A stretch of DNA of 64,000 nucleotides from Lacrimispora sphenoides (GTDB taxonomy: Bacteria; Bacillota; Clostridia; Lachnospirales; Lachnospiraceae), in assembly GCF_900105215.1 (NCBI RefSeq), contig NZ_FOIP01000001.1, forward strand, positions 2,544,501 to 2,608,500. Reading direction: 5' to 3'. Each line of letters opens with the position of its first letter. Position 1 is the first letter of the stretch. The notes below the pieces were generated by a model. It searched no databases, had not been told where the DNA came from, and was given only the letters and a program-made list of their open reading frames with translations. A program made the translations under genes and the position numbers. Of this stretch, positions 2,639 to 64,000 are shown one piece after another.

Positions 2639-2680
2639 GAAAAACAGCAAACCATTCATTGATAGTTGGAGGAAAAGAGA

Positions 2681-4273: not shown

Positions 4274-4302
4274 GTAATAAACCAGACAAAGCAAGGAGGT
4301 AA

Positions 4303-5634
<1,332 letters not shown>

Positions 5635-5669
5635 GATTATTGCAATTAAATAAATAAAAAAGCTCTTAG

Positions 5670-5715
5670 CGAGACTTTTGCCTCGTCCTTTTGAAAGGAC
5701 GGGGCTTTTTTTGTT
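5670..5715 (+). terminator. Terminator of the alpha-glucoside operon, T-box-terminator-like
   Basis: The hairpin GCCTCGTCC (5680-5688) / GGACGGGGC (5697-5705) is followed by a T run. The segment from 5670 to 5707 is nearly identical (3 mismatches in 38) to the terminator half of the tyrS T-box at 20642-20679, although no T-box core (GGTGG) is present here. Confidence 0.85.
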
Positions 5716-5809
5716 TATATATTAACATTGCATTCCGTCAATACACTGCAATGAAATTGTATAAAGTAAAATGAAAACAAAGAAAGTAAAAATATATGAA
5801 AGTATATTA

Positions 5810-5837
5810 TTGACAAATACAAAAATTATGATAATAT
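5810..5837 (+). promoter_or_regulatory. Promoter of the deoC-PTS operon
   Basis: A perfect TTGACA -35 box (5810-5815) and a TAATAT -10 box (5832-5837) are 16 bases apart. Transcription should start near 5844. An in-frame ATG at 5849 would then be almost leaderless, which supports the ATG at 5888 as the real deoC start. Confidence 0.6.
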
Positions 5838-5887
5838 AAAATTGAGATATGAAACCAAACAAAAATGAAGAGAAAGGAAATGAAAGA

Positions 5888-6586: not shown

Positions 6587-6608
6587 AAGATGAGGGTGGG
6601 GAACAAAC

Positions 6609-7070
6609 ATGCTAAAAATTTCAGCTTTAATCAATAAAGATTTAATGATTACAGATTTATCGGCAGGCCATAAGGAGAAATGTCTGACGGATATGATTGC
6701 CCTGCTAAAGGCAGAAGGCCGGATTGAAGACGAAGCGGTCTTTCTGGAGACAGTAATGGAGCGGGAGGCAATCGGACCTACAGGAATCGGCATGCAGGTG
6801 GCAATTCCTCATGGTAAGAGCCACACAGTGAAGAGTCCGGCCCTGGTTTTTGCGAAAAGCAAAGACGGTGTGAATTTCAATGCTCCAGATGGGAGCCTTG
6901 CCTCCCTGATCTTTCTGATTGCAGTTCCAGACACAACGGATGATCTGCATTTAAAGATATTGGCAAAGCTTGCAAGAAGCCTGATGCATGAAGAATTCAG
7001 AAGCCGTTTGCTGACATGTGAGGATAAAAGACAACTGTTCACTATTTTAGAAGAGGGGGTTTCTTTATGA
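6609..7070 (+). CDS. PTS fructose-type EIIA subunit
   Basis: A 153-residue cytosolic phosphocarrier that passes phosphate from HPr to its partner EIIB. The active-site histidine is His68 within VAIPHGKS, the PTS EIIA type 2 (fructose/mannitol/PtsN) signature. Its stop codon overlaps the EIIBC start (ATGA), so the two subunits are translationally coupled. The separate EIIA plus EIIBC arrangement is common in sugar-specific fructose-family systems. PtsN-like regulatory function is unlikely because of the coupled permease. Confidence 0.9.
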   Translation: MLKISALINKDLMITDLSAGHKEKCLTDMIALLKAEGRIEDEAVFLETVMEREAIGPTGIGMQVAIPHGKSHTVKSPALVFAKSKDGVNFNAPDGSLASLIFLIAVPDTTDDLHLKILAKLARSLMHEEFRSRLLTCEDKRQLFTILEEGVSL

Positions 7071-8431
7071 AATTAGTAGCAATTACTTCCTGCTCCACAG
7101 GAATCGCACATACTTATATGGCTGCGGAGAAACTTATGATGGAAGCTAAGGCCATGGGGCACGAGATCAAGGTTGAGACACAGGGGTCCATTGGTGCGGA
7201 AAATGTACTTACAGCGGAAGACATTGCCGCAGCAGACGCAGTGCTTATCGCAGCCAATACCGGTGTCAACAAGGAACGGTTTCATGGAAAACGTCTGTAT
7301 GAGACCAATGTGGAGGACGGCATCAACAAGGCCGGTGAGATCATTGAGAAGGCACTGGCAAGTACATATATTTACAAGAACGCTGAGGCAGGTATGGACA
7401 CGAATGCAGCGCAAAATACGAAACAAAAGGTCAGTGTCTACAAACATCTGATGGCAGGTGTTTCCTATATGATTCCCTTTGTCGTGGCAGGAGGCATCTG
7501 TATTGCTCTTTCTTTTGCATTCGGCGGCATCCATTCGGAGGGACCGATTGCACAGGCCTTCAGCATGATTGGCGGCGGAGTCTGCATGGCTCTCATGTTC
7601 CCAATTCTGGGAGGATTTATCGGACACTCCATCTCAGACCGGCCCGGCCTTCTGCCCGGTATGGTAGGCGGTATGCTTGCCAGCACATTGAATGCGGGAT
7701 TTTTAGGAGCGCTGATCGGTGGATTTTTAGGCGGATACGCGGCATTATTCTTAAAAAAGGTGATCAAAATGCCAAAGGGTCTGGAAGGCCTGATGCCTGT
7801 TTTGATCGTACCGTTTTTATCATCTGTGATTGTAGGGCTTACCATGATTTTTATCATCGGTACTCCTTTTAAGGCGCTGAATGTTTGGATCACAGAGTTT
7901 TTAAACAGCTTATCCGGTGTGAATTCCGCCCTTCTGGGATTGATTCTTGGGGCAATGATGGCGGTCGATTTAGCTGGACCCATCGGAAAGGCAGCTTATT
8001 TCTTTGGAGTTGCGTCTTTAACGACTTTGTCTCCGGGAGAGACGGCACCGGTTATGGCGGCGGTTATGGCTTCGGGTATGGTTCCTCCGTTAGCAATGGC
8101 ACTTTCCACCATCATTGCGAAGGATCGTTATACCACAGACCAAATTGAGTCGGGAAAGACGGCTTGGATCCTGGGAGCTTCTTTTATCAGCGAGGGGGCA
8201 ATCCCCTTTGCGGCAGCCGATCCGGTCCGTGTACTACCTTCTGTTACCATAGGAGCAGCGGTTACCGGAGCGTTATCCATGATCTTTAACTGCGGGCTGG
8301 CGGTTCCTCATGGCGGGGCCTTTGTATTTGTTATTCCGGGGGCAGTTTCCAATCTGCCGCTCTACCTTGTGGCAATTATCGTGGGAACGATCATATCCGG
8401 AGTTTTGGTAAGCTTTTTAAAGAAACGCTGA
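7067..8431 (+). CDS. PTS fructose-family permease, EIIBC subunits
   Basis: A 454-residue fusion of an N-terminal EIIB domain (about residues 1-100) and a membrane EIIC domain (about 125-454). The EIIB phospho-cysteine is Cys9 in SCSTGIAHTYMAA, the fructose-type loop, with Ser in place of the usual Pro after Cys. EIIC shows the expected hydrophobic helices and glycine-rich segments (for example GGFIGHSISDRPG). It imports and phosphorylates a sugar, giving a 1- or 6-phosphate. There is no 1-phosphofructokinase in the operon; deoC and two dehydrogenases follow instead, so plain fructose is improbable and a polyol, ketose or deoxy sugar is more likely (inference). Confidence 0.9.
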   Translation: MKLVAITSCSTGIAHTYMAAEKLMMEAKAMGHEIKVETQGSIGAENVLTAEDIAAADAVLIAANTGVNKERFHGKRLYETNVEDGINKAGEIIEKALASTYIYKNAEAGMDTNAAQNTKQKVSVYKHLMAGVSYMIPFVVAGGICIALSFAFGGIHSEGPIAQAFSMIGGGVCMALMFPILGGFIGHSISDRPGLLPGMVGGMLASTLNAGFLGALIGGFLGGYAALFLKKVIKMPKGLEGLMPVLIVPFLSSVIVGLTMIFIIGTPFKALNVWITEFLNSLSGVNSALLGLILGAMMAVDLAGPIGKAAYFFGVASLTTLSPGETAPVMAAVMASGMVPPLAMALSTIIAKDRYTTDQIESGKTAWILGASFISEGAIPFAAADPVRVLPSVTIGAAVTGALSMIFNCGLAVPHGGAFVFVIPGAVSNLPLYLVAIIVGTIISGVLVSFLKKR

Positions 8432-8457
8432 TTGAACAGCGGTGAGGGGAAATAAGG

Positions 8458-9474
8458 ATGAGAGACATAATAAATATTTGTTTGATAGGCGCAGGGCGTG
8501 CAGGAATGATTCATGCAAGAAATTTCGTATCCCGTGTACCGTATGCGAAAATGGCGGCAGTCTGTGATCCTTCGGAAGCTGCGTGTCAGGCGGCGGTGAA
8601 GGAACTGGAGATTTCACTGTATTACACAGATTATAAGGAAGCGCTGAAAAATGAAGAGATCGATGCCGTAGTCGTTGTCACGCCCACTGTGTTTCACCGT
8701 GAGATTGTAATCGCGGCCGCAAATGCAAAGAAACACATTCTCTGCGAAAAGCCAATGGCAATGAATGAGAAAGAGTGCGAGGAGATGATCGGTGCCGCAA
8801 AGGCAAACGGTGTCAAGCTTCAAATCGGGTTCATGCGGAGATTTGATGACAGCTTCGTCTATGGAAAGAAGCTTGTGGAGGAAGGGGAGATCGGTGATGT
8901 GGTGCTTGTTAAATCCCTCACAAGGGGCCCCAGCATACCCAAGCCATGGATGTATGATATTAAAAAGAGCAATGGCCCCCTCGCAGAAGTAAACAGCCAT
9001 GACATCGACACGCTCCGCTGGTTTACAAAGGGAGAATTTCAAACCGTATACGCTGTGGCGGGTAATTACCGGTGCATGGAGGCGAAAGAGGAGTTTCCTG
9101 ATTTCTATGATAACGTTATAATGAATGCAAAGTTTGACAATGGCATTCTGGGAAGCATTGACGGTGCCCAGGGAGTGGGCTATGGATACGATGCGCGCGT
9201 GGAAATACTGGGAACCAGAGGACTGATTACATTAGGGGAGCTAAAGGATAAGTCCACAGTCATATATACCAAAAATAACGGCGGCAGAATGGATGTTGTG
9301 AACAGCTGGACCCACCTGTTCCGGGAGGCTTATATCAATGAAGACATCAGCTTTATCCAGGCGATATTATATGACCGGGAACCGGAAGTGACAGGAAAGG
9401 ACGGCTTGATGGCTGTAAAGGTGGTCAATGCCGGAAATGAATCCATTGTCACCGGAGAGATTGTGAAACTGTAA
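8458..9474 (+). CDS. Gfo/Idh/MocA family oxidoreductase
   Basis: A 338-residue NAD(P)-dependent dehydrogenase of the inositol 2-dehydrogenase/glucose-fructose oxidoreductase superfamily. The Rossmann domain (about residues 1-125) has GAGRAGMIHARNF, and the catalytic EKP motif is CEKPMA with Lys98. The C-terminal alpha/beta domain has EVNSHDIDTLRWF, matching the usual catalytic His-x-x-Asp region. AGGGGAAATAAGG precedes the start. It sits between the PTS and a zinc alcohol dehydrogenase in one operon. It probably oxidises or epimerises the imported sugar or sugar phosphate; the substrate is unknown, and myo-inositol is not favoured because no other iol genes are present. Confidence 0.88.
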   Translation: MRDIINICLIGAGRAGMIHARNFVSRVPYAKMAAVCDPSEAACQAAVKELEISLYYTDYKEALKNEEIDAVVVVTPTVFHREIVIAAANAKKHILCEKPMAMNEKECEEMIGAAKANGVKLQIGFMRRFDDSFVYGKKLVEEGEIGDVVLVKSLTRGPSIPKPWMYDIKKSNGPLAEVNSHDIDTLRWFTKGEFQTVYAVAGNYRCMEAKEEFPDFYDNVIMNAKFDNGILGSIDGAQGVGYGYDARVEILGTRGLITLGELKDKSTVIYTKNNGGRMDVVNSWTHLFREAYINEDISFIQAILYDREPEVTGKDGLMAVKVVNAGNESIVTGEIVKL

Positions 9475-9549
9475 GGTGCATGCTGCAGGAATTGTACCCC
9501 AGGGAACGTACTGCAGAAGCAGAGAGTGTAGAAATATAAGGGAGTATTT

Positions 9550-10590
9550 ATGAAAGCGATAAGATTATATGGAAAAGAGGATCTGCGTCTGGAGGACGTA
9601 AATGTACCTGAAATATCCGGGGATGAAGTTCTGATAAAGACAAAGAGTGCAGCGCTTTGCGGAACCGATATCCGGATGTACAAAAACGGTGCATCAGGAA
9701 TCGATAAGGATCATCCGCTGATCATCGGACATGAGATCAGCGGGATCATTGAACAGGTTGGCAAGCATGTACGGGGCTATCGTCCCGGCATGAGGGTTGC
9801 TGTAGCCCCTAATATGGGCTGCGGAACCTGTGACAGATGTGTGTCCGGCAATACCCATCTGTGCGCGGATTATCAGGCGCTTGGAATCAACTTAGACGGG
9901 GGATTTGCCGAATATGTCAGGATTCCGAAGGCTGCAGTTATCCAGGGAAATATAAAAATACTGGATGACCACATGGGCTTTGACGAAGCGGCTGTGGCAG
10001 AACCGCTTTCCTGTGTGTACAACGGACAGGAGCAGGCAGGAATTCATCCAGGGGATAAAGTACTGGTTATCGGAGCAGGGCCGATCGGTCTGATGCATGG
10101 AATGCTGGCAAAGATGCAGGGCGCAGGCATGGTCATGATGAATGACCTGTCCGCAGAACGCCTGGCTTACTGCAAGTCTCTGTATCCGTATATGCATACC
10201 ATAGAGGCAGATTCCCTGCGTGAGACGGTGATGCATCTGACGAAAAACCGGGGGGCGGACGTGATCATTGTTGCATGTCCTTCGGGAGAAATGCAGTCCA
10301 TGGCCATCGAGCTGGCTGGCTTATTCGGCAGAGTTTTATTCTTCGGAGGCCTGCCAAAAGACCGGGAGATGGTTTCAATCAATTCAAACTTGATCCACTA
10401 TAAGCAGATCAGTATCCATGGAAGCACCAGAGCCAGCTTAAGCCAGTACCGCAAAGTCCTGGATTTTGCGGCAGACGGTGTCATCGACTTAAAGCAGCTG
10501 GTTACCCATGTTTATGAGATAGGAGACTATCAGAAGGCGTTTACTGAAACAATAAAATCCAGCGGACTCAAGCATGTGATACAATTTTAG
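9550..10590 (+). CDS. Zinc-dependent alcohol/polyol dehydrogenase (sorbitol dehydrogenase-like)
   Basis: A 346-residue medium-chain dehydrogenase. The catalytic zinc site is contributed by CGTDIRMY and GHEISG. The structural zinc loop has four cysteines in the GCGTCDRCVSGNTHLC segment, and the NAD-binding loop is VIGAGPIGLMH. This pattern is typical of L-iditol/sorbitol, threonine and related dehydrogenases. It is the last catabolic gene of the deoC-PTS operon, before the DeoR regulator. A role in oxidising a polyol phosphate or secondary alcohol in that pathway is likely but unproven. Confidence 0.88.
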   Translation: MKAIRLYGKEDLRLEDVNVPEISGDEVLIKTKSAALCGTDIRMYKNGASGIDKDHPLIIGHEISGIIEQVGKHVRGYRPGMRVAVAPNMGCGTCDRCVSGNTHLCADYQALGINLDGGFAEYVRIPKAAVIQGNIKILDDHMGFDEAAVAEPLSCVYNGQEQAGIHPGDKVLVIGAGPIGLMHGMLAKMQGAGMVMMNDLSAERLAYCKSLYPYMHTIEADSLRETVMHLTKNRGADVIIVACPSGEMQSMAIELAGLFGRVLFFGGLPKDREMVSINSNLIHYKQISIHGSTRASLSQYRKVLDFAADGVIDLKQLVTHVYEIGDYQKAFTETIKSSGLKHVIQF

Positions 10591-10619
10591 CGAATATCCG
10601 ATTGACAATTGGCCTTCTC

Positions 10620-10648
10620 CTGACTTTATTTTTTCGGTGATTTATAGT
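10620..10648 (+). promoter_or_regulatory. Possible promoter of the DeoR-type regulator
   Basis: CTGACT (10620-10625), a 17-base spacer and TATAGT (10643-10648) lie 35 bases before the regulator start. An upstream TTGACA at 10602 has no good -10 partner. The regulator could also be read through from the operon. Confidence 0.4.
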
Positions 10649-10682
10649 ATATTAGATATAGTAAAAACAGGGGTGAAGCCAA

Positions 10683-11462
10683 ATGAATGAAAAAGAAACC
10701 GTATTTATGGAAGAACGAAAGCAGATGATTTTGAATTTACTACAGGAGACCGAGAAGGTGACGGTAGCCTATTTAAGTGAACTGTTCAATGTATCAGGTG
10801 CAACAATCCGAAGCGACTTAAGAGATCTGGAGAACGAAAAGCTTCTGCTCAGGACCCATGGCGGGGCAATGCGGATATCCAAGTCGGCATTTGAGATAGA
10901 GCCGCAAAAGCGGGGAGAAGCCACCGAATGCAAGGAGGCGATAGCCAGGGCGGCGGTAACGTTCATTGACGACGGGGATACGATTGCAGTGGATACGGGC
11001 AGTACCTGTTATGCATTTGCAAAGCATCTGGGTACGAAAAAAGATCTTCGTGTCGTGACCAACGACTTAAGCATTGCCGCTCTGCTTGACCAGTTTGAGG
11101 ATGTTACGGTTTATTTCATCGGAGGTGTCATCCGCAAACATTATAATTGTACCATAGGCAGCTTTGGTACCGCACCGTTTCAGGATCTGGTTGTGGATAA
11201 GGCAATAATGGGTACAAACAGTTTTACTCTGGCAAAAGGAGCGACAACCCCGGACGTGGGACAGGCGGAGATGAAAAAGCTGCTTGTGTCTATATCGGAT
11301 AAGGTTTTCATCCTGGGAAGCAGTGATAAAATCGGCCGGAATTCGTTTGTGACCTTTGCGGAAAGCAATCAGATTGATGTGATCATTACGGATGGGGCGA
11401 TCAGTAAGGCATACAAAGAAAGCATAGAAGATAGTGGTATTGAATTGGTGATTGCTGAATAA
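10683..11462 (+). CDS. DeoR/GlpR family transcriptional regulator
   Basis: A 259-residue repressor-type protein. The N-terminal DeoR helix-turn-helix (about residues 10-65, with VAYLSELFNVSGATIRSDLRDL) is followed by a DeoRC sensor domain with DTGSTCYAFAKHL and GGVIRKHYNCTIG, related to phosphosugar isomerases. DeoR regulators bind phosphorylated sugars made by the enzymes they control, so this one probably senses an intermediate of the adjacent deoC-PTS pathway. The start at 10683 has AGGGGTG upstream; an in-frame ATG at 10707 is an alternative. Confidence 0.9.
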   Translation: MNEKETVFMEERKQMILNLLQETEKVTVAYLSELFNVSGATIRSDLRDLENEKLLLRTHGGAMRISKSAFEIEPQKRGEATECKEAIARAAVTFIDDGDTIAVDTGSTCYAFAKHLGTKKDLRVVTNDLSIAALLDQFEDVTVYFIGGVIRKHYNCTIGSFGTAPFQDLVVDKAIMGTNSFTLAKGATTPDVGQAEMKKLLVSISDKVFILGSSDKIGRNSFVTFAESNQIDVIITDGAISKAYKESIEDSGIELVIAE

Positions 11463-12005
11463 AAGGGATTGTGGCAAAGGAAATTTACACTTTTATCACA
11501 ACCATTTATTTCTAAAAAAGCTAGGCTACAGTGATGATATATAATAAAAACTGTAGCCCAGCAAAGCTATTTATGCATGTCTTTTTCGCACGATATTGTA
11601 AGTGCAGAAAATATCTATGCTCCCGTATTAACACCCAAATTTAATTATCTCAAAATTTCACATCAAAACCATTTTGGTTTCGGATAGCACATAACAGCTT
11701 TTTTTGTGTATTTGACGAAGTTTATTTGGGGAATAACTGCCCCTTCCTTCATTTATATCTTCTATCATATCTTGTCCCCTTTCTCCATTCTTCTTTCTTT
11801 TCGAATCCCACATAGCCACTTAAACAATAAGCCGCAGACATGTATTAAAGTTAACATGAATTGTCCTTCATATTGGCGTTCTGAGAAAGTTTACTTTCAT
11901 TTTACTGCAGTTTGATAGATAAATTTACATAGTGCAATTATACTGGAAGTGACACAATAAGGCTGCATGATTAAGAAGTATCTGCAGTGCAAAGGAGGTG
12001 GCTTT
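11463..12005 (+). other. Intergenic region without a convincing gene
   Basis: No coding region is supported here. A hairpin with nine-base perfect arms, GGCTACAGT (11524-11532) and ACTGTAGCC (11550-11558), lies 60 bases after the DeoR gene. Its minus strand ends in CTAGCTTTTTT, so it resembles a minus-strand terminator although nothing is seen to terminate there. The rest is AT-rich with nothing recognisable. Confidence 0.5.
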
Positions 12006-12827
12006 ATGCAGCTGCATTTTCCGGTTTTGCCGGAAGAACTGACCAGCGCAGACCAAAAAATTATAGAATATATCAGCAGCCATACCGACGTATTTTTGTT
12101 TATGACCATCGGGCAGCTGTCAGCCTCTTTAGGACTGTCGGATGCAACGGTTTCCCGTTTTGCACGGCATGTGGGCTGCAAGGATTTTAAGGAGCTTAAG
12201 CATGTAGTAATACAGCAGAGTACGGAACATAGGCCGGTACAAAAAATAGCTGCACCGCTTTTGCAGGAGACGGAATTTACACTGCAAAATTGGCTCCTGC
12301 GGCAGCAGCATTGCTTACAAAAGACCCTGGAGCAGCTGGATACATCGGAGTTTGAGTGTGCTATTAGGTCGATTCAGGAGGCAAAGTGCATCTTTATTTA
12401 TGCTAAAAATGCCTCATTCTCTCTGGGACAGCTTTTGTTTTTCCGCCTGCGCCGCCTTGGGCTTTCCGTGGTGCTTCTCCCATCCGGTGGAGCAGAGGTG
12501 CTTGAAGGTCTGGCACAGGCAGGAGCAGGAGACCTTGTCATCATGTTTAATATTTCCAGAGTTTCCCGGGAGGGGAATATGATTCTTAAGTATCAGAAAA
12601 TAGCTGCTTACCATACGCTGGCCTTTACCAGCAGGCTATATGTACCGGATAAGCAAAAAGCTGATATACAGCTGTATGTTTACCAGGGTGAGGAAAAGGA
12701 ATACCATTCCATGTCTGCCCCCATTGCTGTAGTAGATGGGCTGGTTGTGGCATTGTCGAATAGAATGGGATATGAATCTGCCCAATGGTTCGATAGACTC
12801 AGAAATAGGTACGCTGATATCAACTGA
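12006..12827 (+). CDS. RpiR/MurR family transcriptional regulator, orphan
   Basis: A 273-residue regulator with an N-terminal RpiR helix-turn-helix (about residues 15-75; LSASLGLSDATVSRFARHVG) and a C-terminal SIS-like domain (about 110-250; IFIYAKNASFSLGQLLFFRL). The start chosen is ATG 12006, preceded by AAAGGAGGTG at 11991-12000; an upstream in-frame ATG at 11967 lacks a ribosome binding site. No sugar operon follows. Only a short gene remnant lies downstream before pdxS, so its target operon has apparently been lost or lies elsewhere in the genome. Confidence 0.85.
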   Translation: MQLHFPVLPEELTSADQKIIEYISSHTDVFLFMTIGQLSASLGLSDATVSRFARHVGCKDFKELKHVVIQQSTEHRPVQKIAAPLLQETEFTLQNWLLRQQHCLQKTLEQLDTSEFECAIRSIQEAKCIFIYAKNASFSLGQLLFFRLRRLGLSVVLLPSGGAEVLEGLAQAGAGDLVIMFNISRVSREGNMILKYQKIAAYHTLAFTSRLYVPDKQKADIQLYVYQGEEKEYHSMSAPIAVVDGLVVALSNRMGYESAQWFDRLRNRYADIN

Positions 12828-12906
12828 TTCCTGTAATACAGTGATTATTGTATATAGCCTGTCACTCAAAGTGATAAATAAAACATATGTAGAAATAGGA
12901 GTATAA

Positions 12907-13014
12907 TGCCAAAAAATTATTGTAGCCCGGATCAAGGCACAGATGATGGGAATTCCTGCGGAGCACTTTACTACCGATCAGGTTCCTAACCATGGGCCCC
13001 ATGAATCCCGCTAA
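12907..13014 (+). pseudogene. C-terminal remnant of an unidentified gene
   Basis: A 35-codon stop-to-stop reading frame with protein-like composition (its core reads KAQMMGIPAEHFTTDQ and ends in HGPHESR before TAA). It lacks a start codon and ribosome binding site. It looks like the last codons of a gene whose body was deleted, in the same direction as the orphan RpiR regulator 80 bases upstream. I do not recognise the family. Confidence 0.3.
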
Positions 13015-13053
13015 AGGATGTAATACGGATAAGAAACTGCTCATAAAATTCCT

Positions 13054-13104
13054 GACTGGTATTTCTGAATAAACATAAACTGGTACTTTCAATAGGTCCA
13101 GTTT
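13054..13104 (+). promoter_or_regulatory. Candidate PdxR-type operator upstream of pdxS
   Basis: Two direct copies of ACTGGTA followed by a pyrimidine-TT (near 13054 and 13079) are 25 bases apart. The second is also half of an inverted repeat, AAACTGG (13077-13083) / CCAGTTT (13098-13104). Mixed direct and inverted repeats are typical of sites bound by MocR-type PdxR activators of pdxST. No pdxR gene is in the window. A second inverted repeat, TTTTGGGG (13102-13109) / CCCCAAAA (13133-13140), lies in the leader. Confidence 0.35.
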
Positions 13105-13157
13105 TGGGGCATAATAGCTATATTAACTTAGACCCCAAAATACAAGGAGGAATTATC

Positions 13158-13979
13158 ATGACAGAGCAATATGAACTCAATAAAAATCTGGCTCAAATGC
13201 TTAAGGGCGGCGTAATCATGGACGTCAGCACCCCGGAACAGGCGCAAATAGCTGAAAAAGCGGGGGCATGTGCGGTGATGGCATTGGAGCGGATTCCCGC
13301 CGACATCCGGGCGGCAGGCGGCGTTTCCAGAATGAGCGACCCTAAAATGATTAGAGGGATTCAAGCGGCGGTATCCATTCCTGTAATGGCAAAAGTGCGC
13401 ATTGGGCATTTTGTGGAAGCGCAAATTCTGGAGGCCATCGAAATCGACTACATAGACGAAAGCGAAGTGCTTTCTCCGGCGGATGACATCTATCACATTG
13501 ACAAAACCAAATTCCGCGCACCCTTTGTCTGCGGTGCGAAGGACCTTGGAGAAGCATTGCGCCGCATTGCCGAGGGCGCGTCGATGATTCGCACCAAGGG
13601 CGAGCCAGGGACTGGCGATGTGGTTCAGGCCGTGCGGCATATGCGGAAAATTCAAAGCGAAATCCGGCTGCTCACTGCATTGCGGTCGGATGAATTATTT
13701 GAAGCCGCTAAGCAACTGGCTTCCCCATTGGATCTGGTGAAATGGGTGGCACAAAACGGCAAACTTCCTGTTGTGAACTTTGCCGCCGGAGGCGTGGCGA
13801 CTCCTGCTGATGCCGCACTGATGATGCAGTTGGGAGCGGAAGGTGTGTTTGTGGGTTCTGGTATCTTTAAGTCGGGCAATCCGGAAAAACGTGCCGCCGC
13901 CATTGTAAAAGCGGTTACCAATCTTAATGATGCAAAGCTGATCGCAGAACTTAGCGAAGACTTGGGCGAGCGATGGTAG
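13158..13979 (+). CDS. pdxS: Pyridoxal 5'-phosphate synthase, PdxS subunit, C-terminal frameshift
   Basis: Synthase subunit that builds pyridoxal phosphate from ribose 5-phosphate, glyceraldehyde 3-phosphate and PdxT-derived ammonia. Catalytic lysines Lys79 (VMAKVRIGH) and Lys147 ([10 protein letters not shown]) are present. The start is ATG 13158 after AAGGAGG. The frame stops after 273 residues with LGERW. The adjacent frame from 13970 to 14029 encodes [19 protein letters not shown], which fits the normal PdxS C terminus exactly after LGE. One base is therefore missing around 13968-13970; the intact protein would have about 290 residues. The C-terminal tail of this family helps close the active site and assemble the dodecamer, so function may be impaired unless this is a sequencing error. 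pdxT follows at once. Confidence 0.9.
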
Positions 13980-14039
13980 GTATCAATGAGCAGGAAATCG
14001 CCCTCTTGATGGCGGAACGCGGAAAGTAGAGTGAGCACC

Positions 14040-14600
14040 ATGAGAATTGGTATACTTGCCTTGCAGGGCGCGTTTATAGAGCATGAAAAGATGCTGGCCA
14101 AATTGGGGGCAGACAGCTTTGAAATCCGGCAACGGGCAGATTTTACGGAAGAGATGGACGGCTTAATTTTGCCCGGCGGCGAAAGTACGGTGATGGAAAA
14201 GTTGATGCGGGAATCAGAATTAAAGGAGCCAATCCTTCAAGTGATTCAAAGAGGACTTCCTGTGATGGGTACTTGCGCCGGTATGATCCTGCTTGCGAAA
14301 ACAGTTATCGGAGGAGAAAGCCATCTTGCCTGTATGGATATTACCGTGGAGCGCAACGCATACGGGAGGCAATTGGCCAGCTTCAAAACTGAATCGGAAT
14401 TTGGCGGCATTGGAATCATTCCGATGGTGTTTATCCGTGCGCCATATGTTGCTAATGTTGGTCAGGGTGTGGAGGTTTTGGCAAAGGTTGACGGGAAAAT
14501 CGTAGCTGTCCGGGAAAAGAATATGCTGGCTTGTGCTTTCCATCCAGAGTTGACGGAAGATACGACCGTTCATTCTCACTTTTTGCACTTGTGTAGATAA
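14040..14600 (+). CDS. pdxT: Pyridoxal 5'-phosphate synthase glutaminase subunit PdxT
   Basis: Class I glutamine amidotransferase that feeds ammonia to PdxS. The 186-residue protein begins MRIGILALQGAFIEH. It has the catalytic Cys79 in GTCAGMILLA and the His168/Glu170 pair in FHPELTED, with the GGESTVMEKL oxyanion segment. The ATG at 14040 is chosen because family members begin immediately before this strand; a GTG at 14031 would add three residues. It begins 11 bases after the frame-restored end of pdxS, the normal pdxST operon. Confidence 0.95.
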   Translation: MRIGILALQGAFIEHEKMLAKLGADSFEIRQRADFTEEMDGLILPGGESTVMEKLMRESELKEPILQVIQRGLPVMGTCAGMILLAKTVIGGESHLACMDITVERNAYGRQLASFKTESEFGGIGIIPMVFIRAPYVANVGQGVEVLAKVDGKIVAVREKNMLACAFHPELTEDTTVHSHFLHLCR

Positions 14601-14805
14601 ATGAATTGTTGAGAGAAGATTTTGTTGAGTAACAACAAAAAGAACTAAATAAAGTATGCCACATGATATGGGCCTGCATTGAGGGAGCGCGCAAAAGGGA
14701 CAGGGCAAGCAGGGTAAGAAAAAATGGATATAATGTTTTATATTCACTTGTTATCTCGTATAATAAAATATAATATTTGAATCTTTATAATGGAGACCAT
14801 TACTT

Positions 14806-16578
14806 ATGTATCAAAAATACGAACTTGAAATACGACAAAGAGAATCAGAACACGAAGAATACGATAAATTAGCTAATATAGTAGGAAGATTCAAATTGAT
14901 TTGGATCGTTATGTTAGGGTATACCATTTATAATGCATGGACAAACCATTTCCCATTAAAATTTATTGTATTGTTGTTAGTAGAAGCGGTCATTTTTATT
15001 ATTGCTTGCATCTATCATAGAAAACTATTTCAACGTATCGCATATGAGGCGGGTCTTATTGCTATTGCAAAAAAGAACTTGTGCCGCATGTCAGGAGAAT
15101 GGAGAACGTTCGATGACATTGGGGAAGAGTTTATTGATTACAACCATAGCTATGCAATGGATTTAGATATTGTTGGCAGGTATTCCTTGTTTCAGCTTTT
15201 GAACAGTACAAATACTTATTATGGAAGATTAAGGTTTGCTCAAGACTTGTTGGATCCTAATTATTCACAAAAAGATATACAAATGAGGCAAGAGTCTATT
15301 TCAGAATTGAGCAATGATTATCCTTGGAGTAGTCACTTAGAATATTACTTTTCAAAAATCGGTATAGATAGGTCATTTCCCACGCTTATTTCAGAATTGC
15401 AGTGTAAAAACACTTTCATCAAAAGTAAGCTTTTACAACGCTTGTTGGATATTTTCCGTGTACTCACTTGTGGGTCAATCATTTTTTCTATATTAACAAA
15501 GAACAGATACGGTATACTTGTTGCAAGCTCTCTGATTTTGTTTCAACTTATACTTTGGGGTATTGGCTTTCTTAAAGCTAATAGATATGTAGGAATAATG
15601 AGGAAAATCCCTTATAAAATATTAAAATATGATGATGTTATTCAGGAAATTGTGGAAAAGGAATTTTGTTCTTCTCGGTTAAATAAGATCAAATCAATTT
15701 TGCACTCGGCCAAAGAGGCAATACAAGATTTATCAAAGATATCAAGTAACATCAGTCAACGACAAAATGGAATTGCTTGTTTCTTTTTGAATGCTGTATG
15801 GCTATGGGATTATAAAAATGCCGTGGATTTAGATATCTGGAAACGTAAGCATGGTGATTCAGTGGCTATGTGGTTTTCCGCTATGGGAGAATTGGAAAGC
15901 TTGTTGAGTTTGGCAAATCTACCCCGTAACTGCACGGTTACTGGCCTTCCTATAATTTCCACACAGCCCAATACCATTAGAGCTAAAAATTTAGGACACC
16001 CCCTTTTAAACAATAATAATAGGGTTAGTAACGATTTGGAACTAGACAATAATATTCTAATTATTTCCGGCTCCAATATGTCTGGAAAAACCACATTTAT
16101 GAGAACTGTGGGAATTAATATGATTTTAGCGAGTACAGGAAGTTATGTATGTGCAGATCATATGACATTTTCCATGATGAAAGTAATGACTTCTATGCGT
16201 ATAGCGGATGCGTTAACAGAAGAAATTTCCACATTCTATGCGGAACTAAAGCGAATTAAAGAAATTATAGATGCAGCGCAGGTGAATGAGAATCTACTAT
16301 TCCTGATTGATGAAATATTTCGAGGCACAAACTCTGTTGACAGGTTGAAAGGAGCCGAAGGTGTTCTACAAAAACTTCATATACTTGGAATATGCGGTAT
16401 CATTACGACACATGATTTAGAGGTTTGTAAATTAGAAAGTGCATACCGGCGTATTAAAAATTATTGTTTTAATGAACAATATTCTAATAACGATATTATC
16501 TTTGATTATAAAATGAAAAAAGGAGTGTCGAAAACAACCAACGCACAATATCTTCTTAAAAAAGTTGGTATTATTTAA
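14806..16578 (+). CDS. Membrane-anchored MutS-like ATPase
   Basis: A 590-residue protein whose C-terminal third is a MutS-type ATPase. The Walker A loop is GSNMSGKTT at residues 422-430. Walker B is LLFLIDEIFRGTN with Asp502-Glu503, followed by a THD switch segment. Unlike MutS or MutS2, the N terminus carries two hydrophobic helices (about residues 30-70), and another hydrophobic pair lies near 215-260, so the protein is probably bound to the inner membrane. There is no mismatch-recognition or Smr domain. The gene is visibly more AT-rich than its neighbours and may have been acquired. Such membrane MutS homologues occur in Firmicutes and Bacteroidetes without known function; a role in classical mismatch repair should not be assumed. 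Confidence 0.85.
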   Translation: MYQKYELEIRQRESEHEEYDKLANIVGRFKLIWIVMLGYTIYNAWTNHFPLKFIVLLLVEAVIFIIACIYHRKLFQRIAYEAGLIAIAKKNLCRMSGEWRTFDDIGEEFIDYNHSYAMDLDIVGRYSLFQLLNSTNTYYGRLRFAQDLLDPNYSQKDIQMRQESISELSNDYPWSSHLEYYFSKIGIDRSFPTLISELQCKNTFIKSKLLQRLLDIFRVLTCGSIIFSILTKNRYGILVASSLILFQLILWGIGFLKANRYVGIMRKIPYKILKYDDVIQEIVEKEFCSSRLNKIKSILHSAKEAIQDLSKISSNISQRQNGIACFFLNAVWLWDYKNAVDLDIWKRKHGDSVAMWFSAMGELESLLSLANLPRNCTVTGLPIISTQPNTIRAKNLGHPLLNNNNRVSNDLELDNNILIISGSNMSGKTTFMRTVGINMILASTGSYVCADHMTFSMMKVMTSMRIADALTEEISTFYAELKRIKEIIDAAQVNENLLFLIDEIFRGTNSVDRLKGAEGVLQKLHILGICGIITTHDLEVCKLESAYRRIKNYCFNEQYSNNDIIFDYKMKKGVSKTTNAQYLLKKVGII

Positions 16579-16760
16579 ACAAACAATATTAATCAGATTG
16601 GGAATCAGTAATAGTTCAAAATAGATATGCCGGAAGATCAGACTGCCTATCCAACCTGTCAAAGGCTGAGTAGTATTTTGTTCACGCAAAATCTTAGTGA
16701 CGATACAATCAGGGGATTGGAGCTATAATCGGTTATTTTATTTTAGACTTTTCCCATTAA

Positions 16761-16796
16761 AAAACTATCAATAATCATATTGGTAGTTTTTTTATA
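16761..16796 (+). terminator. Terminator downstream of the MutS-like gene
   Basis: Twelve-base arms AAAACTATCAAT (16761-16772) and ATTGGTAGTTTT (16779-16790) enclose a six-base loop and run into more T residues. The structure works on both strands. Confidence 0.7.
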
Positions 16797-16935
16797 TTAG
16801 ACATTTAAGCAGATAAAGATTCAAGTGAGTATTTCAAGTGATCTGCTGGATCTGTTTGATTATATAAAATTCGGCAGATTGCTATACATATGTGATAGAA
16901 ATTAAGCAATAACGTAGAAGGGAAATATTAGTGGG

Positions 16936-16975
16936 GGAAAAAGCCCGAGTAACGAAAAGGAAAGTTACTCAGGCT
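16936..16975 (-). terminator. Minus-strand terminator downstream of the YcaQ-type gene
   Basis: Thirteen-base arms with one mismatch (16941-16953 and 16963-16975). On the minus strand the hairpin ends in GGGCTTTTT. It probably terminates the minus-strand operon ending at 17104. Confidence 0.7.
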
Positions 16976-16995
16976 TGTACGCGAGATGTGAATTC

Positions 16996-17091
16996 TTAAT
17001 TAACAGTCATAGCCATGTCGCTAATGATGTCGCTGAGTGTAGCATTACCGAAGTATGTACATGAAATGTCTGTTCTTAAATAGGATATCAT
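16996..17091 (-). CDS. Possible 31-residue peptide
   Basis: An ATG-initiated minus-strand frame begins 12 bases after the YcaQ-type stop codon and ends just before that operon's terminator. The peptide begins MISYLRTDISCTYFGNATL and is acidic towards its end, with no membrane segment. There is no clear ribosome binding site, so it may be chance. It is listed because it lies on the transcript. Confidence 0.2.
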   Translation of the reverse strand: MISYLRTDISCTYFGNATLSDIISDMAMTVN

Positions 17092-17103
17092 GCTTTGCTG
17101 CTG

Positions 17104-18312
17104 TCATACATCCAGATACGCAAAATCAATCACATCACACTCATTAAATTTAGCGAACCGTTTCATACAGCCATTAACGGCTGCCTGAAGCTTTTTTGTT
17201 TGCCTGATTCCATCCTCATACCAGATATTTTTGACAACCAGGGTACTCTTCTTTATGTCAGCGACTGCTTCCACACGTCCGATAAAACTGTTGCCATAAA
17301 GCATCGGTAAAACATAAAAGCCATATTTACGTTTGTCAGCCGGAGTATAGATTTCCCAGGTGTATTCAAAGCCAAACAATGCACGGATCAGCTTTCTGTC
17401 CCACATCATACAGTCAAGCGGTGCAATCAGTTCACAGCGGGGTTTATAAGTATCGGTTTGTAATACAGTTTCTATAAGAGATAAATCCTCTGCCTGGCAG
17501 AAAAGTATATCCTTTATACCGTCTACACTGACTTGCAGAATTTTCCCTTCGTCAAGCAATTCTTTGAACATTTCAGTTCTTTGAGGAGTTTTAAGCCCCC
17601 AAATATTTAACCAAGCATCGGAAGGACGATTCCATAGAAGCCCTACTGCGCCTATCCGCCGAAGAATACGCCATTTTTGATGCTCAAATTCATCCGGCAG
17701 AGGGTCAGGAATGTCGAGGAGTTCGGCAGGCAAATACTTATGGGTGAGGTCGTAATACTTTCTTGAGCCTTTCTTATGATGAATGATCAGCTCACCGGTA
17801 GAATATAACTGCTCCAGCACCGCCCGTGACGCATTGGTATCGCCGCTCCAATTACCGCTCCAATGAATGGAAGAGTGCCAGAGTATGCTGCCCTTTATGG
17901 GCAAGCTGTCAGAGCCGACCGCTCCGTTTGCCTGGATGTAATCCTTCGTGTTTGCTTCCAGTTCCCCCAGTTCTTTGAAACGCCGTCCTCCTTCTCGTGC
18001 AGCATTCCGATAACGTTCAAAATACGGCCAGTCTTCTGTGGGAATGATGGAAAGATTTTTATCAGGATAATCCACAAGCATTCGGTCGTTATACAACAGC
18101 TCGTAAAGCGTTTGCTTTGTAAAGCCTTTGACACGGGACTGCAGGGTAAGCTCCGCATTCTTTCCACAGGAATCAACCGGATCAAATTGAATACAGCCTG
18201 TCTGGCGCACAAAATCAAAGGCGCCCTGCTTACCGTTAAATTTGTGATCGCCCAGCAGCCCGTGTTTGAGAAGCATAAAATGCCTTGCCTGTTTGTTAGT
18301 TAAAGTGATCAT
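17104..18312 (-). CDS. Winged-helix DNA glycosylase family protein (YcaQ/AlkX-type)
   Basis: A 402-residue member of the HTH_42 family, which includes E. coli YcaQ (AlkX) and Streptomyces AlkZ, DNA glycosylases that unhook interstrand crosslinks and remove bulky alkyl adducts. The family's catalytic Q-hydrophobic-D/Q motif is visible as QFD at residues 42-44, followed by LTLQSRVKGF, the conserved arginine region. QFD is the variant associated with AlkX rather than AlkZ. Several winged-helix segments follow (for example SRAVLEQLYSTGELIIHHKKGSR, shortened here to its role as a wing). The HEAT-repeat gene is 90 bases upstream on the same strand and may share the transcript. The start at 18312 has GAGGGAAACC upstream. 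Confidence 0.8.
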   Translation of the reverse strand: MITLTNKQARHFMLLKHGLLGDHKFNGKQGAFDFVRQTGCIQFDPVDSCGKNAELTLQSRVKGFTKQTLYELLYNDRMLVDYPDKNLSIIPTEDWPYFERYRNAAREGGRRFKELGELEANTKDYIQANGAVGSDSLPIKGSILWHSSIHWSGNWSGDTNASRAVLEQLYSTGELIIHHKKGSRKYYDLTHKYLPAELLDIPDPLPDEFEHQKWRILRRIGAVGLLWNRPSDAWLNIWGLKTPQRTEMFKELLDEGKILQVSVDGIKDILFCQAEDLSLIETVLQTDTYKPRCELIAPLDCMMWDRKLIRALFGFEYTWEIYTPADKRKYGFYVLPMLYGNSFIGRVEAVADIKKSTLVVKNIWYEDGIRQTKKLQAAVNGCMKRFAKFNECDVIDFAYLDV

Positions 18313-18402
18313 AGGTTTCCCTCCAGTAAATTACCAGTTTCATAATGATACTCTTTTTTGATATAGTAATGTTCAAACTTCCTTTTTTTACGGAGCAGTG
18401 TG

Positions 18403-19062
18403 TTATTGCTGCAGGGCATGAAGTTTTTTCAGCAATTTATTGATACGAGTTTGCTGAGGCGGTGTTAAGCCGGATTTCCGTTCTTCTAAAACTTTAATAA
18501 AATCACTTGCATTTTCACTATTAAAGCAGATTGCCGCTCTTTCAGCATGTTGGGGTACTTCTCTGGGTTTGCATTTTTGAAAATGGTTTATGATTATTGG
18601 GAAGACTGTTTCCGCATAGCTGCCGTTAGCTTTGCACAATTTTGCAAATACGCTTATGCTGTTGTCAACTGTGATAACGCTTCCTTCTTCATAATACGAT
18701 TTTATCTCTGACAATTTTTCAAAAATAGGTTGAGAAGCATATACCGTTATCTTAGCTAATGCCATCATACTTCCCCATACCAATCTATTGTTTTTTGAGC
18801 ACAGACAGGAAATAAATTCATTTGCGTAATCAGAAATCAATTTTGGGTTTCTTTCACCTATTTCATACAATACCTTAATACAGTCATTTGCAACTGCTCT
18901 ATCTGTACCTTTCAATCCGTCAACTATTTCCCTAATTCCGGCAGAATCATTGTGTTGACACAGATATTCAGCCAATTCAATATTTGGTATTTCATCATTG
19001 CTTCCCAGCTTGCAGGCCAATTTTTCTATCATATAAAGACCTTCGAAAACAATATTATCCAT
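18403..19062 (-). CDS. HEAT-repeat-like protein
   Basis: A 219-residue all-alpha protein with consecutive helical pairs of HEAT/armadillo type (for example ANDCIKVLYEIGERNPKLI and VWGSMMALAKI). There is no signal peptide or membrane segment. The size resembles AlkD-type HEAT glycosylases, but the AlkD catalytic Trp-Asp signature is absent, so no enzymatic role is assigned. The start at 19062 lacks a strong ribosome binding site; an in-frame ATG at 19032 has GAAGG 7 bases upstream and may be the true start. It lies upstream of the YcaQ-type gene on the same strand. The function is unknown. Confidence 0.7.
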   Translation of the reverse strand: MDNIVFEGLYMIEKLACKLGSNDEIPNIELAEYLCQHNDSAGIREIVDGLKGTDRAVANDCIKVLYEIGERNPKLISDYANEFISCLCSKNNRLVWGSMMALAKITVYASQPIFEKLSEIKSYYEEGSVITVDNSISVFAKLCKANGSYAETVFPIIINHFQKCKPREVPQHAERAAICFNSENASDFIKVLEERKSGLTPPQQTRINKLLKKLHALQQ

Positions 19063-62020: not shown

Positions 62021-62035
62021 AGAACATATGTTCGA
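62021..62035. promoter_or_regulatory. LexA (SOS) box 1
   Basis: AGAACATATGTTCGA contains the perfect palindrome GAACATATGTTC (62022-62033), matching the Gram-positive LexA site (GAAC-N4-GTTC). It ends 7 bases before the -35 box of the following promoter. Confidence 0.85.
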
Positions 62036-62042: not shown

Positions 62043-62071
62043 TTGACAACTGGATTCGATAGTATTATAAT
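62043..62071 (+). promoter_or_regulatory. Consensus promoter between two LexA boxes
   Basis: TTGACA (62043-62048), a 17-base spacer and TATAAT (62066-62071) match the sigma-A consensus exactly. LexA boxes lie on both sides, so it should be silent until DNA damage. The transcript would start near 62078, with a leader of about 170 bases to the ORF at 62247. Confidence 0.85.
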
Positions 62072-62088: not shown

Positions 62089-62103
62089 AGAACATGTGTT
62101 CGA
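62089..62103. promoter_or_regulatory. LexA (SOS) box 2
   Basis: AGAACATGTGTTCGA contains the dyad GAACA-TG-TGTTC (62090-62101). It lies at about +12 to +25 relative to the expected start, where LexA would block transcription. Confidence 0.85.
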
Positions 62104-62246: not shown

Positions 62247-62396
62247 ATGTCAAGTACAAATAAAACATCATTAGGATTAAATATGTGGGAAGCATCAAAT
62301 AAGCCTGTAAGACAGGATTTTGTCAATGATAATGTTATTATTGATGAGAAAATTACTAAGTTAAATAGTGATTTAAATAATAAATGCTTAATTTAA
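62247..62396 (+). CDS. Truncated phage tail-fibre-like N-terminal peptide
   Basis: A 49-residue ORF behind a good AGAGGAG site, the first gene after the SOS promoter. It starts MSSTNKTSLGLNMWEASNKP and continues with VRQDFVNDNVIIDEKI, the pattern (TNKT-x-LGLN-x-W, then DFN-x-x-x-x-IDxK) that opens many Firmicutes phage tail-fibre or collar proteins. It then stops with LNSDLNNKCLI where such proteins should continue for hundreds of residues. The segment LNSDL is matched on the opposite strand about 600 bases later. The gene is either truncated or one orientation of a switchable cassette. Confidence 0.6.
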   Translation: MSSTNKTSLGLNMWEASNKPVRQDFVNDNVIIDEKITKLNSDLNNKCLI

Positions 62397-62986
62397 TCAA
62401 CTGTAAGTATGCTACAGAACAAATATAAATTTATGCTATACGGAGCATATGCTGGATCTAGTTATTACAGGTAAAATAGGATTTTAAAAGTCTTATCTAA
62501 TGGCATAGCAAAGTTGGACTACTCTGTGGATTAAATGATTATTTAAGTTATTTGAGTTCACGGAATACGTTATACTAGTTTGGTCTCACTGATGCTTAAA
62601 ATGATCATTTACATCTAATAAGCACTAAAATTATATATATTCAGCACTTCCGGGATTCCACCGTCAACAGGCCGCAAAAACAGTATCACCAATCTCATTT
62701 ACAAACGAATAGATATAACCAGCCTTATAAGTGCTTAATAGTACTGGAGCTACAACAGGTTTTAGTTTTTTGTTAATGTAAAAAAATGTAGTTTCATTTG
62801 CTAACCACTGACGGTGCAGTTATAGAAAGAAATATTAATCTGATCTCCTGATATACCTGAGCATTACGTTTATGGTCCTAAAAAACGCCTAATGTGTTAA
62901 TGAAATTGGCCTTATACCATTTATATTATCGCTTACCGTTACTAAATTGCTATTTGTTGTAGCAATCTGATTCTGTAAATCACTAT
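62365..62986. repeat. Candidate invertible segment bounded by inverted repeats
   Basis: ATAGTGATTTA (62365-62375) reappears inverted as TAAATCACTAT (62976-62986). Both copies lie in tail-fibre-like coding sequence for SDL, on opposite strands. Inversion would join the N-terminal ORF in frame to the antisense SDLQNQ sequence. The repeat is short, so chance is possible. Confidence 0.4.
62664..62986 (-). pseudogene. Decayed tail-fibre fragments on the opposite strand
   Basis: Read on the minus strand, three pieces are protein-like: SDLQNQIATTNSNLVTVSD (from about 62985 to a stop at 62889), a short GDQINISFYNCTVSG (about 62860-62805), and a 48-codon piece in the next frame (62810-62664) that contains KPVVAPVLLSTYKAGYIYSF and ends FAAC before a stop. 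The first resembles the helical spacer of tail fibres and the last a fibre C terminus. One frameshift near 62805 and stop codons separate them, so this is a decayed variable region of a fibre gene. Part of 62397-62663 looks decayed too, but nothing there is recognisable. Confidence 0.45.
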
Positions 62987-63051
62987 ATTATTGAGTAGTG
63001 GACCAAAACGGCTCTATCTTTTACAATAATGTGGAAGGAGGGCTTTAACAA

Positions 63052-64000
63052 ATGATAGAGCAGATTTTGGAAAAAGTAATCAATACTATGCTGCCGCACC
63101 TGGATAGTGGACAAATGGAGCAGTTGCATAATGCACTGTATATTAATTTTCACGGCGTGGAAGTAAGGGAAGAATGTTACGAGGTAGCAGAAACGGGCAT
63201 TGACGGCGACACCTTAAAGGTCAAGATGTTCGTGGCAAGCAAAAAGGCAGTTAACCGACAGGAAAATACCTTAAAGCAATATACAACGGAGATCTGCAAG
63301 ATGCTGGATTTCCTGGGGAAACGGATTGAGGACATTACCGCCATGGATCTCCGATATTATTATGGGGTCATGAGGGAGCAGCACGGCATTAAAATGACCA
63401 CCATGCAGACAAGGCTGCATTATTTATCCAGCTTCTGGGATTTCCTCACTACAGAGGAGCTTGTGACCAGTAACCCGGTTAAGCGGGTAGGGATCCTGAA
63501 GCTGGCCAAGACCATCAAAAAGCCGTTTTCCCAGGAAGAAATGGAAGCACTTAGGGTTAATTGTACGGTACTGAGGGACCGTGCCTTAATGGAGTTTTTG
63601 TACAGTACAGGTGTCAGGGTGTCAGAGTTGGCGTTACTGAATGTTTGTGATATAGAAATGGGGCGGCAGGAGTTGATTGTATTTGGTAAGGGAAGTAAGG
63701 AAAGAAAGGTGTATTTGACGGATAATGCTAGGTTTTACTTAAAGAGATACCTTAAGGAGCGTATGAAGGAGGAGGGGATAACCGAGGAAGAATTGGTAAA
63801 TAAGCCTTTATTTGCAACACTAGATCAGCCTCATGCTCGCCTAACTGTTGCCGGAATCCAATATATGTTTAGGCAGCTTGGGCGGCGTGCAGGTGTGAAG
63901 AAGGTCCATCCGCATCGTTTCCGAAGGACTATAGCTACTGATCTATTGAATAGAGGGATGCCGGTGGAGCAGGTGTCAAAACTTCTGGGACATGAAAAAT
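63052..64000 (+). CDS. Tyrosine recombinase/integrase, partial at window end
   Basis: At least 316 residues of a phage-integrase-family site-specific recombinase, cut by the window end. An N-terminal SAM-like core-binding domain (about residues 75-150) is followed by the catalytic domain. Visible catalytic elements are Arg in STGVRVSELALL, Lys in GKGSKERKVYL, HPHRFRR (the H-x-x-R box) and LLGHEK; the nucleophilic Tyr lies beyond the end. AAGGAGG precedes ATG 63052. XerC/XerD or transposon-type integrases are relatives. Its position directly after the inverted tail-fibre fragments suggests it may act on that segment; it could equally be an integrase of a mobile element to the right. Confidence 0.85.
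   Translation, partial: MIEQILEKVINTMLPHLDSGQMEQLHNALYINFHGVEVREECYEVAETGIDGDTLKVKMFVASKKAVNRQENTLKQYTTEICKMLDFLGKRIEDITAMDLRYYYGVMREQHGIKMTTMQTRLHYLSSFWDFLTTEELVTSNPVKRVGILKLAKTIKKPFSQEEMEALRVNCTVLRDRALMEFLYSTGVRVSELALLNVCDIEMGRQELIVFGKGSKERKVYLTDNARFYLKRYLKERMKEEGITEEELVNKPLFATLDQPHARLTVAGIQYMFRQLGRRAGVKKVHPHRFRRTIATDLLNRGMPVEQVSKLLGHEK

What the first reader, a model, noticed from the sequence alone, without database searches (positions are those of the whole stretch)
62247..62986. Candidate SOS-induced, invertible tail-fibre cassette
The first SOS gene is a tail-fibre-like N terminus that stops abruptly at LNSDLNNK. On the other strand, 600 bases on, SDLQNQIATTNSNLVTVSD continues exactly the expected fibre sequence. 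An inverted ATAGTGATTTA lies at both junctions, so inversion would restore a longer fibre. This suggests recombinase-driven receptor-specificity switching tied to DNA damage, perhaps for a tailocin or prophage. Frameshifts and stops show it has decayed at least partly.
Basis: partly seen in the sequence, partly recalled or inferred. Interest (0 to 1): 0.75.

Follow-up and report, generated by a model that had tools for sequence, protein, structure and literature searches.

The report
SOS-controlled toxin operon with shuffling tips
A DNA-damage-type promoter heads a bacterial toxin operon whose first gene, a phage-fibre-like protein, sits beside a recombinase and a set of flippable alternative ends, which suggests that members of one clone can aim the same toxin at different targets.

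Summary
The 740 bp are the first cassette of a four-site shufflon: fibre-like N-terminus, site S1, cassette, S2, tyrosine recombinase, S3, second cassette, S4. Then follow a 351-aa W-repeat protein and a 1737-aa Rhs protein with a polymorphic C-terminus. Fibre-like and W-repeat genes occur in the same 17 of 25 genus genomes. A perfect sigma-70 promoter lies between two LexA boxes. In one relative all four sites read in frame into open C-termini of 73-109 aa.

In another relative a tailocin-like locus with a 94% identical recombinase is present twice, at the two overlapping ends of one contig. One cassette is inverted between the versions, exchanged at the site core: direct evidence of inversion for this recombinase family, though not for this genome.

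'Decay' is doubtful: the window's two cassettes differ by 64 gaps but only 14 substitutions, as expected of a consensus from a mixed, shuffling culture. No tail gene was recognised nearby; the operon encodes an Rhs toxin. That the fibre aims the toxin is inferred. The switch works like Rin of Bifidobacterium prophages; its use in an Rhs operon is a new variant.

The parts
62022..62033 (.). LexA-type box 1, GAACATATGTTC
   Evidence: one of the two LexA-family genes of the genome has GAACATAGGTTC upstream
62043..62071 (+). Consensus sigma-70 promoter TTGACA-N17-TATAAT
62090..62101 (.). LexA-type box 2, GAACATGTGTTC
62247..62396 (+). Constant N-terminus of the fibre-like protein; about 43 aa conserved in relatives, then the core
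62364..62375 (+). Site S1, core AATAGTGATTTA, codes NSDL
62376..62975 (.). Cassette 1: two convergent C-terminal modules, broken in this assembly
   Evidence: midpoint palindrome TGATCA at 62602-62607
62976..62987 (-). Site S2, core TATAGTGATTTA, inverted to S1
63052..64000 (+). Tyrosine recombinase of XerD/XerA type, 339 aa, runs on past the window's end. Beyond the window, in L004 coordinates (window = L004 + 61500): recombinase 1552-2571, S3 at 2690 (+), cassette 2, S4 at 3379 (-), W-repeat protein 3603-4712, Rhs protein 4730-9943

Best explanation
The locus is a four-site tyrosine-recombinase shufflon built into the first gene of a LexA-type-controlled Rhs toxin operon of Lacrimispora or near kin. 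Shown by sequence: (1) a constant N-terminus of about 43 aa ends at a short core coding NSDL (NSNL in some relatives); (2) cassettes with two convergent C-terminal modules are bounded by inverted cores; (3) the recombinase lies between two such cassettes; (4) in relatives the modules are open in the N-terminal frame from the core, and most show no similarity to each other; (5) a homologous recombinase locus exists in two orientations in one assembly, exchanged at the core. Inferred: here the recombinase inverts S1-S2, S3-S4 or S1-S4, so that one module at a time is fused to the N-terminus; the fibre-like protein is the receptor-binding part of a particle or complex with the W-repeat and Rhs proteins; DNA damage de-represses the operon, perhaps with the recombinase; the product is released by lysis, since no signal peptide is evident by eye. 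A clone then carries one toxin with several target specificities. The broken reading frames in the window are mostly a consensus artefact of that mixture.
For: Fibre N-terminus and W-repeat gene in the same 17 of 25 genus genomes (G020's N-terminal hit and G017's W-repeat hits are partial). Exact LexA boxes upstream in 16 of 17 loci examined, paired in 12; promoter at 11 or 12 of 12 positions in 14 of 18. Recombinase module of the same extent, core to core, in 4 operon loci and in both copies of a tailocin-like locus. G007: all four sites open in frame for 86, 109, 73 and 81 aa. Of 7 recombinase-free loci read, L039, L043, L044 and L046 have reverse modules of 114, 130, 93 and 94 aa that end 9-19 nt from the forward stop; the others are 13, 75 and 53 aa. 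Exact inverted core pair of 14-17 nt in 5 of 13 recombinase-free loci, 0 of 100 shuffles each. A C-terminus forward at S1 in G008 is 58% identical over 90 aa to one on the reverse strand at S2 in G081; one forward in G011 resembles the reverse module at S4 of this genome. Tailocin-like locus in two orientations, right halves exchanged at ATGCTGAT. Rhs identity falls from 0.73-0.85 to 0.18-0.23 past the core.
Against: No reads were at hand, so inversion in this genome is not shown. The tailocin-like locus has another core (GCTGAT, not AGTGAT). 6 of 13 recombinase-free loci show no site pair, so switching is not needed for the operon. G008 has no exact LexA box. The single-contig genomes G011 and G008 have mostly open cassettes, so a shuffling locus need not corrupt an assembly. 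The Rhs gene shows 15-73 gap events in blastn alignments to three relatives, most not multiples of 3, although its ORF is open. Nothing shows contact between fibre-like and Rhs proteins. Two fibre proteins found no match in 50,697 phage records; family matches are weak (a tail-fibre family at E=0.015).
Confidence: 0.66

Rival explanations
1. The cassettes of this genome are truly decayed: the switch works or worked in relatives but is dead here, leaving an Rhs operon with a truncated 49-aa first gene.
For: All four in-frame readings are short: 9, 31, 34, 11 aa. 6 of 13 recombinase-free relatives have no site pair. G011 and G008, also single contigs, are mostly clean.
Against: The recombinase, W-repeat and Rhs ORFs are open; the recombinase has 0 gaps in 1,020 nt against three relatives. 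The two cassettes differ by 64 gap events to 14 mismatches, the reverse of ordinary drift. In G013 one cassette copy differs from its clean twin by 23 gaps and 0 mismatches in 686 nt, 33.5 gaps per kb, against 1.5 and 0.66 in the flanks; but 20 of the flank gaps cluster in one 2.4-kb stretch outside the cassettes, so indel errors there are not confined to cassettes.
Confidence: 0.22
2. The fibre-like protein is switched but does not aim the Rhs toxin: it is a separate adhesin, lectin-like bacteriocin or decoy that shares only the promoter.
For: No physical link was tested. Several hundred bases with antisense modules, and in some genomes the recombinase, lie between it and the W-repeat gene.
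Against: Fibre N-terminus and W-repeat gene occur in the same 17 of 25 genomes, in the same order, although upstream neighbours differ.
Confidence: 0.25
3. The recombinase with its two flanking cores is a small mobile element that inserted at the core; inversion is a side effect.
For: The module has the same extent, core to core, in toxin operons and in the tailocin-like locus; operons without it exist.
Against: Four open in-frame modules in G007 and the back-to-back modules of recombinase-free loci point to selection for alternative C-termini.
Confidence: 0.12

Closest known systems
Rin shufflon of Bifidobacterium prophages (PMC6109161; passages, section 8 read)
   Same: Constant receptor-binding N-terminus, dissimilar C-termini of about 100 residues, short asymmetric crossover sites, adjacent XerD-like tyrosine invertase; the paper also describes an inverted locus without a linked recombinase.
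   Different: Here the switched gene heads an Rhs toxin operon, outside any recognised tail cluster and behind LexA boxes; the recombinase lies between two convergent pairs of modules; the core differs and codes NSDL/NSNL.
Rhs/YD-repeat polymorphic toxins (PMC3482391, passages)
   Same: RHS repeats, RHS core, variable C-terminus, Ntox37 match.
   Different: A switchable fibre-like gene and a W-repeat gene precede it; no type VI gene was recognised nearby.
Tailocin-like locus of G013 (L052/L053)
   Same: Recombinase 94% identical, same order of fibre, inverted module, recombinase, second cassette.
   Different: True tail, holin and amidase genes; core GCTGAT; other fibre N-terminus.
R64 shufflon (Rci/PilV; recalled, seen here only as a reference title)
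   Same: Tyrosine recombinase swapping C-termini of an adhesin.
   Different: Pilus tip of a plasmid, not a toxin operon.

Membership tests
Rin-like tyrosine shufflon | Tyrosine recombinase of XerD type beside the variable segment | tested here: met
   Phage_integrase E=5.5e-37; XerD 1a0p E=3e-26; best NCBIfam model, archaeal XerA, is just under its cut-off
Rin-like tyrosine shufflon | Constant N-terminus, dissimilar C-termini, inverted short sites | tested here: met
   In relatives; in this genome the modules are broken
Rin-like tyrosine shufflon | Inversion at the sites observed | tested here: inconclusive
   Shown for the homologous tailocin-like locus; not for this genome, no reads
Rin-like tyrosine shufflon | Common descent with the Rin recombinase | not tested
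   No Rin sequence was compared
Rhs polymorphic toxin | RHS repeats and core, then a variable C-terminus | tested here: met
Rhs polymorphic toxin | Cognate immunity gene and toxic activity | not tested
   The next ORF is a TPR protein; its role is unknown
LexA (SOS) regulon | LexA box at the promoter, same motif at a lexA gene | tested here: met
   only one of the two LexA-family genes has the box in the stretch fetched
LexA (SOS) regulon | Induction by DNA damage | not testable with these tools
   Needs expression data
Prophage or tailocin at the window locus | Tail structural genes in the cluster | tested here: not met
   None recognised by eye; not every ORF was scanned with profiles. The W-repeat protein has one weak phage match, a Hoc-like head decoration family at E=6.2e-4 over 40 residues

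The most novel reading that the evidence does not exclude
An SOS-induced, lysis-released Rhs bacteriocin whose aiming subunit is re-sorted by a shufflon shared with tailocins: DNA damage both arms the toxin and, because the recombinase lies downstream of the same promoter, re-aims it, so a clone releases a mixture of target specificities. Recombinase and cassettes may move between toxin operons and tailocins as one module.
Probability: 0.4. Interest if true: 0.86.

Novelty: new variant of a known kind. Interest (0 to 1): 0.73.

Why it matters
Fibre switching by inversion is known for phages and, through Rin, for tyrosine recombinases. Here it appears to serve a polymorphic toxin operon that has no recognised tail. 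It offers a candidate answer to how Rhs toxins of Gram-positive bacteria choose targets, and a testable link between DNA damage, toxin release and variation of specificity. It also suggests that a seemingly decayed stretch of a genome can be the footprint of an active shufflon in the sequenced culture.

Tried and rejected
Prophage or tailocin at the locus: rejected, no tail gene recognised by eye. Phage relatives: the two fibre proteins searched (L047, L040) found nothing in 50,697 phage records; recombinase and N-terminus gave no confirmed relative in viral contigs. Pfam and PHROGs on ten fibre proteins or modules gave only weak hits; the window's N-terminus matches the start of phrog_33092, unknown function, at E=0.0029. 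PADLOC was not searched. Its profile resembles a cohesin only weakly (E=0.07). G122's N-terminal hit (E=3.1e-4) lies in or beside an unrelated 425-aa ORF and was set aside; G331's W-repeat hit (E=1.4e-4) was not followed. G020, with a partial N-terminal hit, is left out of the tables of boxes and sites; G017 gives two loci. L043 and L046 were left out of the Rhs comparison because their stretches end before the gene. In one search extra core matches inside modules and one beside the recombinase's stop were not counted as sites.

Papers: at least 4 of Rhs, SOS, invertible, tail fiber, Lachnospiraceae: 0. Lacrimispora with invertible: 0. Tailocin, invertible, tail fiber, recombinase: 0. Rhs, DNA inversion, receptor-binding, toxin: 1, on PinQ, listing only. 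Searches were further listings. PMC6109161: passages and section 8 read. PMC5903667 and PMC3482391: passages. That the arrangement is unreported rests on these searches alone.

Full report
The observation. The 49-aa ORF 62247-62396 ends just past LNSDLNNK. The minus strand reads SDLQNQIATTNSNLVTVSD from the second core. The cores at 62364 (+) and 62976 (-) are the only two matches in the window, against 0.05 expected. Upstream, two GAACNNNNGTTC boxes flank a perfect TTGACA-N17-TATAAT promoter. Of two LexA-family genes in the genome, one has such a box upstream in the stretch fetched.

What lies beyond. The window ends inside the next gene. The genome goes on with S2, a 339-aa tyrosine recombinase, S3 (+), a second cassette, S4 (-), a W-repeat protein (351 aa by homology; 369-aa ORF) and a 1737-aa Rhs protein. 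The recombinase is XerD/XerA-like. The Rhs protein has RHS repeats and core and an Ntox37 match over its cut-off. Among 15 Rhs proteins compared, mean pairwise identity is 0.73-0.85 over residues 501-1500 and 0.18-0.23 after residue 1600; 2 of 10 tails scanned match a Pfam family (Ribonuclease, DUF4474). The context is thus a polymorphic toxin operon, not a recognised tail cluster.

Distribution. Record titles of the 13 loci found in genome contigs name Lacrimispora species, 'Clostridium' and several MAGs, among them Hungatella sp.; the genus of the window is inferred from these. The fibre N-terminus and the W-repeat protein occur in the same 17 of 25 genus genomes. Outside the genus, among 397 family genomes sampled, 1 (G081) has both; one further weak hit each (G331, G122) is not counted. 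The full recombinase module lies in the operon of 4 of 25 genus genomes (G000, G011, G013, G007), the protein 98.8-99.4% identical in the other three, and in G081 at 74%. Exact LexA boxes lie upstream in 16 of 17 loci examined, paired in 12 at 66-69 nt. Upstream neighbours differ between genomes.

The switch. The conserved N-terminus ends at the core; beyond it most of the 33 C-terminal readings show no similarity to each other. In G007 the four sites, two on each strand, read in the N-terminal frame for 86, 109, 73 and 81 aa; in G011 for 68, 95, 103 and 95; in G081 three cores read 107, 69 and 89 aa. Of 13 loci without a linked recombinase, 5 have an exact inverted core pair of 14-17 nt, each longer than in any of 100 shuffles; L041 and L042 have imperfect pairs that shuffles can match; 6 have none. 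Of 7 such loci read, the reverse module is 114, 130, 93 and 94 aa in L039, L043, L044 and L046, ending 9-19 nt from the forward stop, and 13, 75 and 53 aa in L041, L042 and L051. The left arm of each of the four sites is nearly constant between genomes while what follows the core differs, as exchange at the core predicts.

Evidence of inversion. (a) A module forward at S1 in G008 is 58% identical over 90 aa to one on the reverse strand at S2 in G081. (b) The reverse module at S4 of this genome resembles the module forward at S1 and S3 in G011. (c) G013 also carries the recombinase (94%) in a locus with tape measure, baseplate, holin and amidase genes and a fibre gene named by position. An XRE-type and an ImmA-type gene and no head gene were recognised by eye upstream, which suggests a tailocin. 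The 5,300,135-bp contig overlaps itself: bases 1-18,901 match its last 19.2 kb, from the first base to the last, at 99.84% and 99.93% outside the cassettes. So one locus was assembled twice, or, less likely, two real copies exist. The recombinase block is 100% identical in the same orientation; cassette 1 is inverted, 695 nt at 99.1%; the right halves of S1 and S2 are exchanged at ATGCTGAT. Cassette 2 differs between the versions.

Decay or artefact. In this genome the two cassettes are imperfect copies in opposite orientation: 590 matches, 14 mismatches, 64 gap events. Controls: the recombinase has 0 gaps in 1,020 nt against each of three relatives; two penicillin-binding-protein-like genes have 0-2 and the W-repeat gene 0-1. 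The Rhs gene is an exception, with 15-73 gap events, but against 504-693 or 492 mismatches and with an open frame, so gaps do not dominate there. In G013 one cassette copy has 23 gaps and 0 mismatches in 686 nt, 33.5 gaps per kb; the flanks have 1.5 and 0.66 per kb, but the 20 gaps of the long flank all fall in one 2.4-kb stretch outside the cassettes. In-frame readings are 97, 124, 169 and 143 aa in the clean version and 134, 24, 8 and 12 aa in the other; the toxin operon of G013 reads 7, 4, 8 and 11 aa. I read the stops in the window as a corrupted consensus of a mixed culture and keep true decay at 0.22. The near-identical cassettes of G011 (611 of 613 columns) may be real duplicates or the same effect.

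Tail-fibre similarity. Against the tailocin-like fibre or its modules, L047's part matches at 59% over 34 aa, L036's at 39% over 44 aa and L039's at 28% over 82 aa. L040's protein hits phrog_3971 (unknown function, E=2.1e-5), phrog_33092 at its N-terminus (E=2.8e-4) and weakly a tail-fibre family (E=0.015).

How it works. Most likely the recombinase inverts segments between inverted cores so that one of up to four C-termini is fused to the constant N-terminus, and LexA controls the operon. That the fibre-like protein aims the Rhs toxin, that release is by lysis and that the recombinase is co-induced are inferences from gene order, promoter and the lack of evident signal peptides. Recombinase-free operons with intact pairs would need an enzyme in trans; homologues of about 30-40% identity exist in some genus genomes, none tested.

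Comparison. The closest known switch is Rin (PMC6109161); the host operon is an Rhs polymorphic toxin (PMC3482391, passages). No report of the combination turned up in the searches named. Hence: new variant of a known kind.

Noticed in passing
G013 (L052, L053, L096, L097): The G013 contig has an untrimmed 19-kb overlap of its ends in which one tailocin-like fibre locus stands in two orientations; such overlaps may be a general source of inversion evidence.
   Followed up: yes
window 62602-62607; L036, L037, L038, L039, L041, L044, L048, L057, L052, L053: A palindrome around TGATCA, mostly AAATGATCATTT, lies at or near the meeting point of the convergent C-termini in 9 of 18 operon loci and in both versions of the tailocin-like locus. 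It gives stops on both strands; a role in cassette assembly is possible.
   Followed up: partly
G000:C1:1580089-1581513 (L117, L118): Two strict LexA-type boxes bracket a small gene group, one of which looks by eye like a phage tail-collar protein.
   Followed up: no
G000:C2:1184078 (L121): A LexA-type box lies just before a 442-aa ORF that by eye resembles a radical-SAM protein.
   Followed up: no
L045, L049, L050, between the fibre-like and W-repeat genes: A 77-aa minus-strand ORF with hydrophobic stretches is conserved in three operons that lack the site pair.
   Followed up: no
L039 (G008): The operon with an intact two-way cassette lacks exact LexA boxes and a consensus promoter, so its control may differ.
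   Followed up: no
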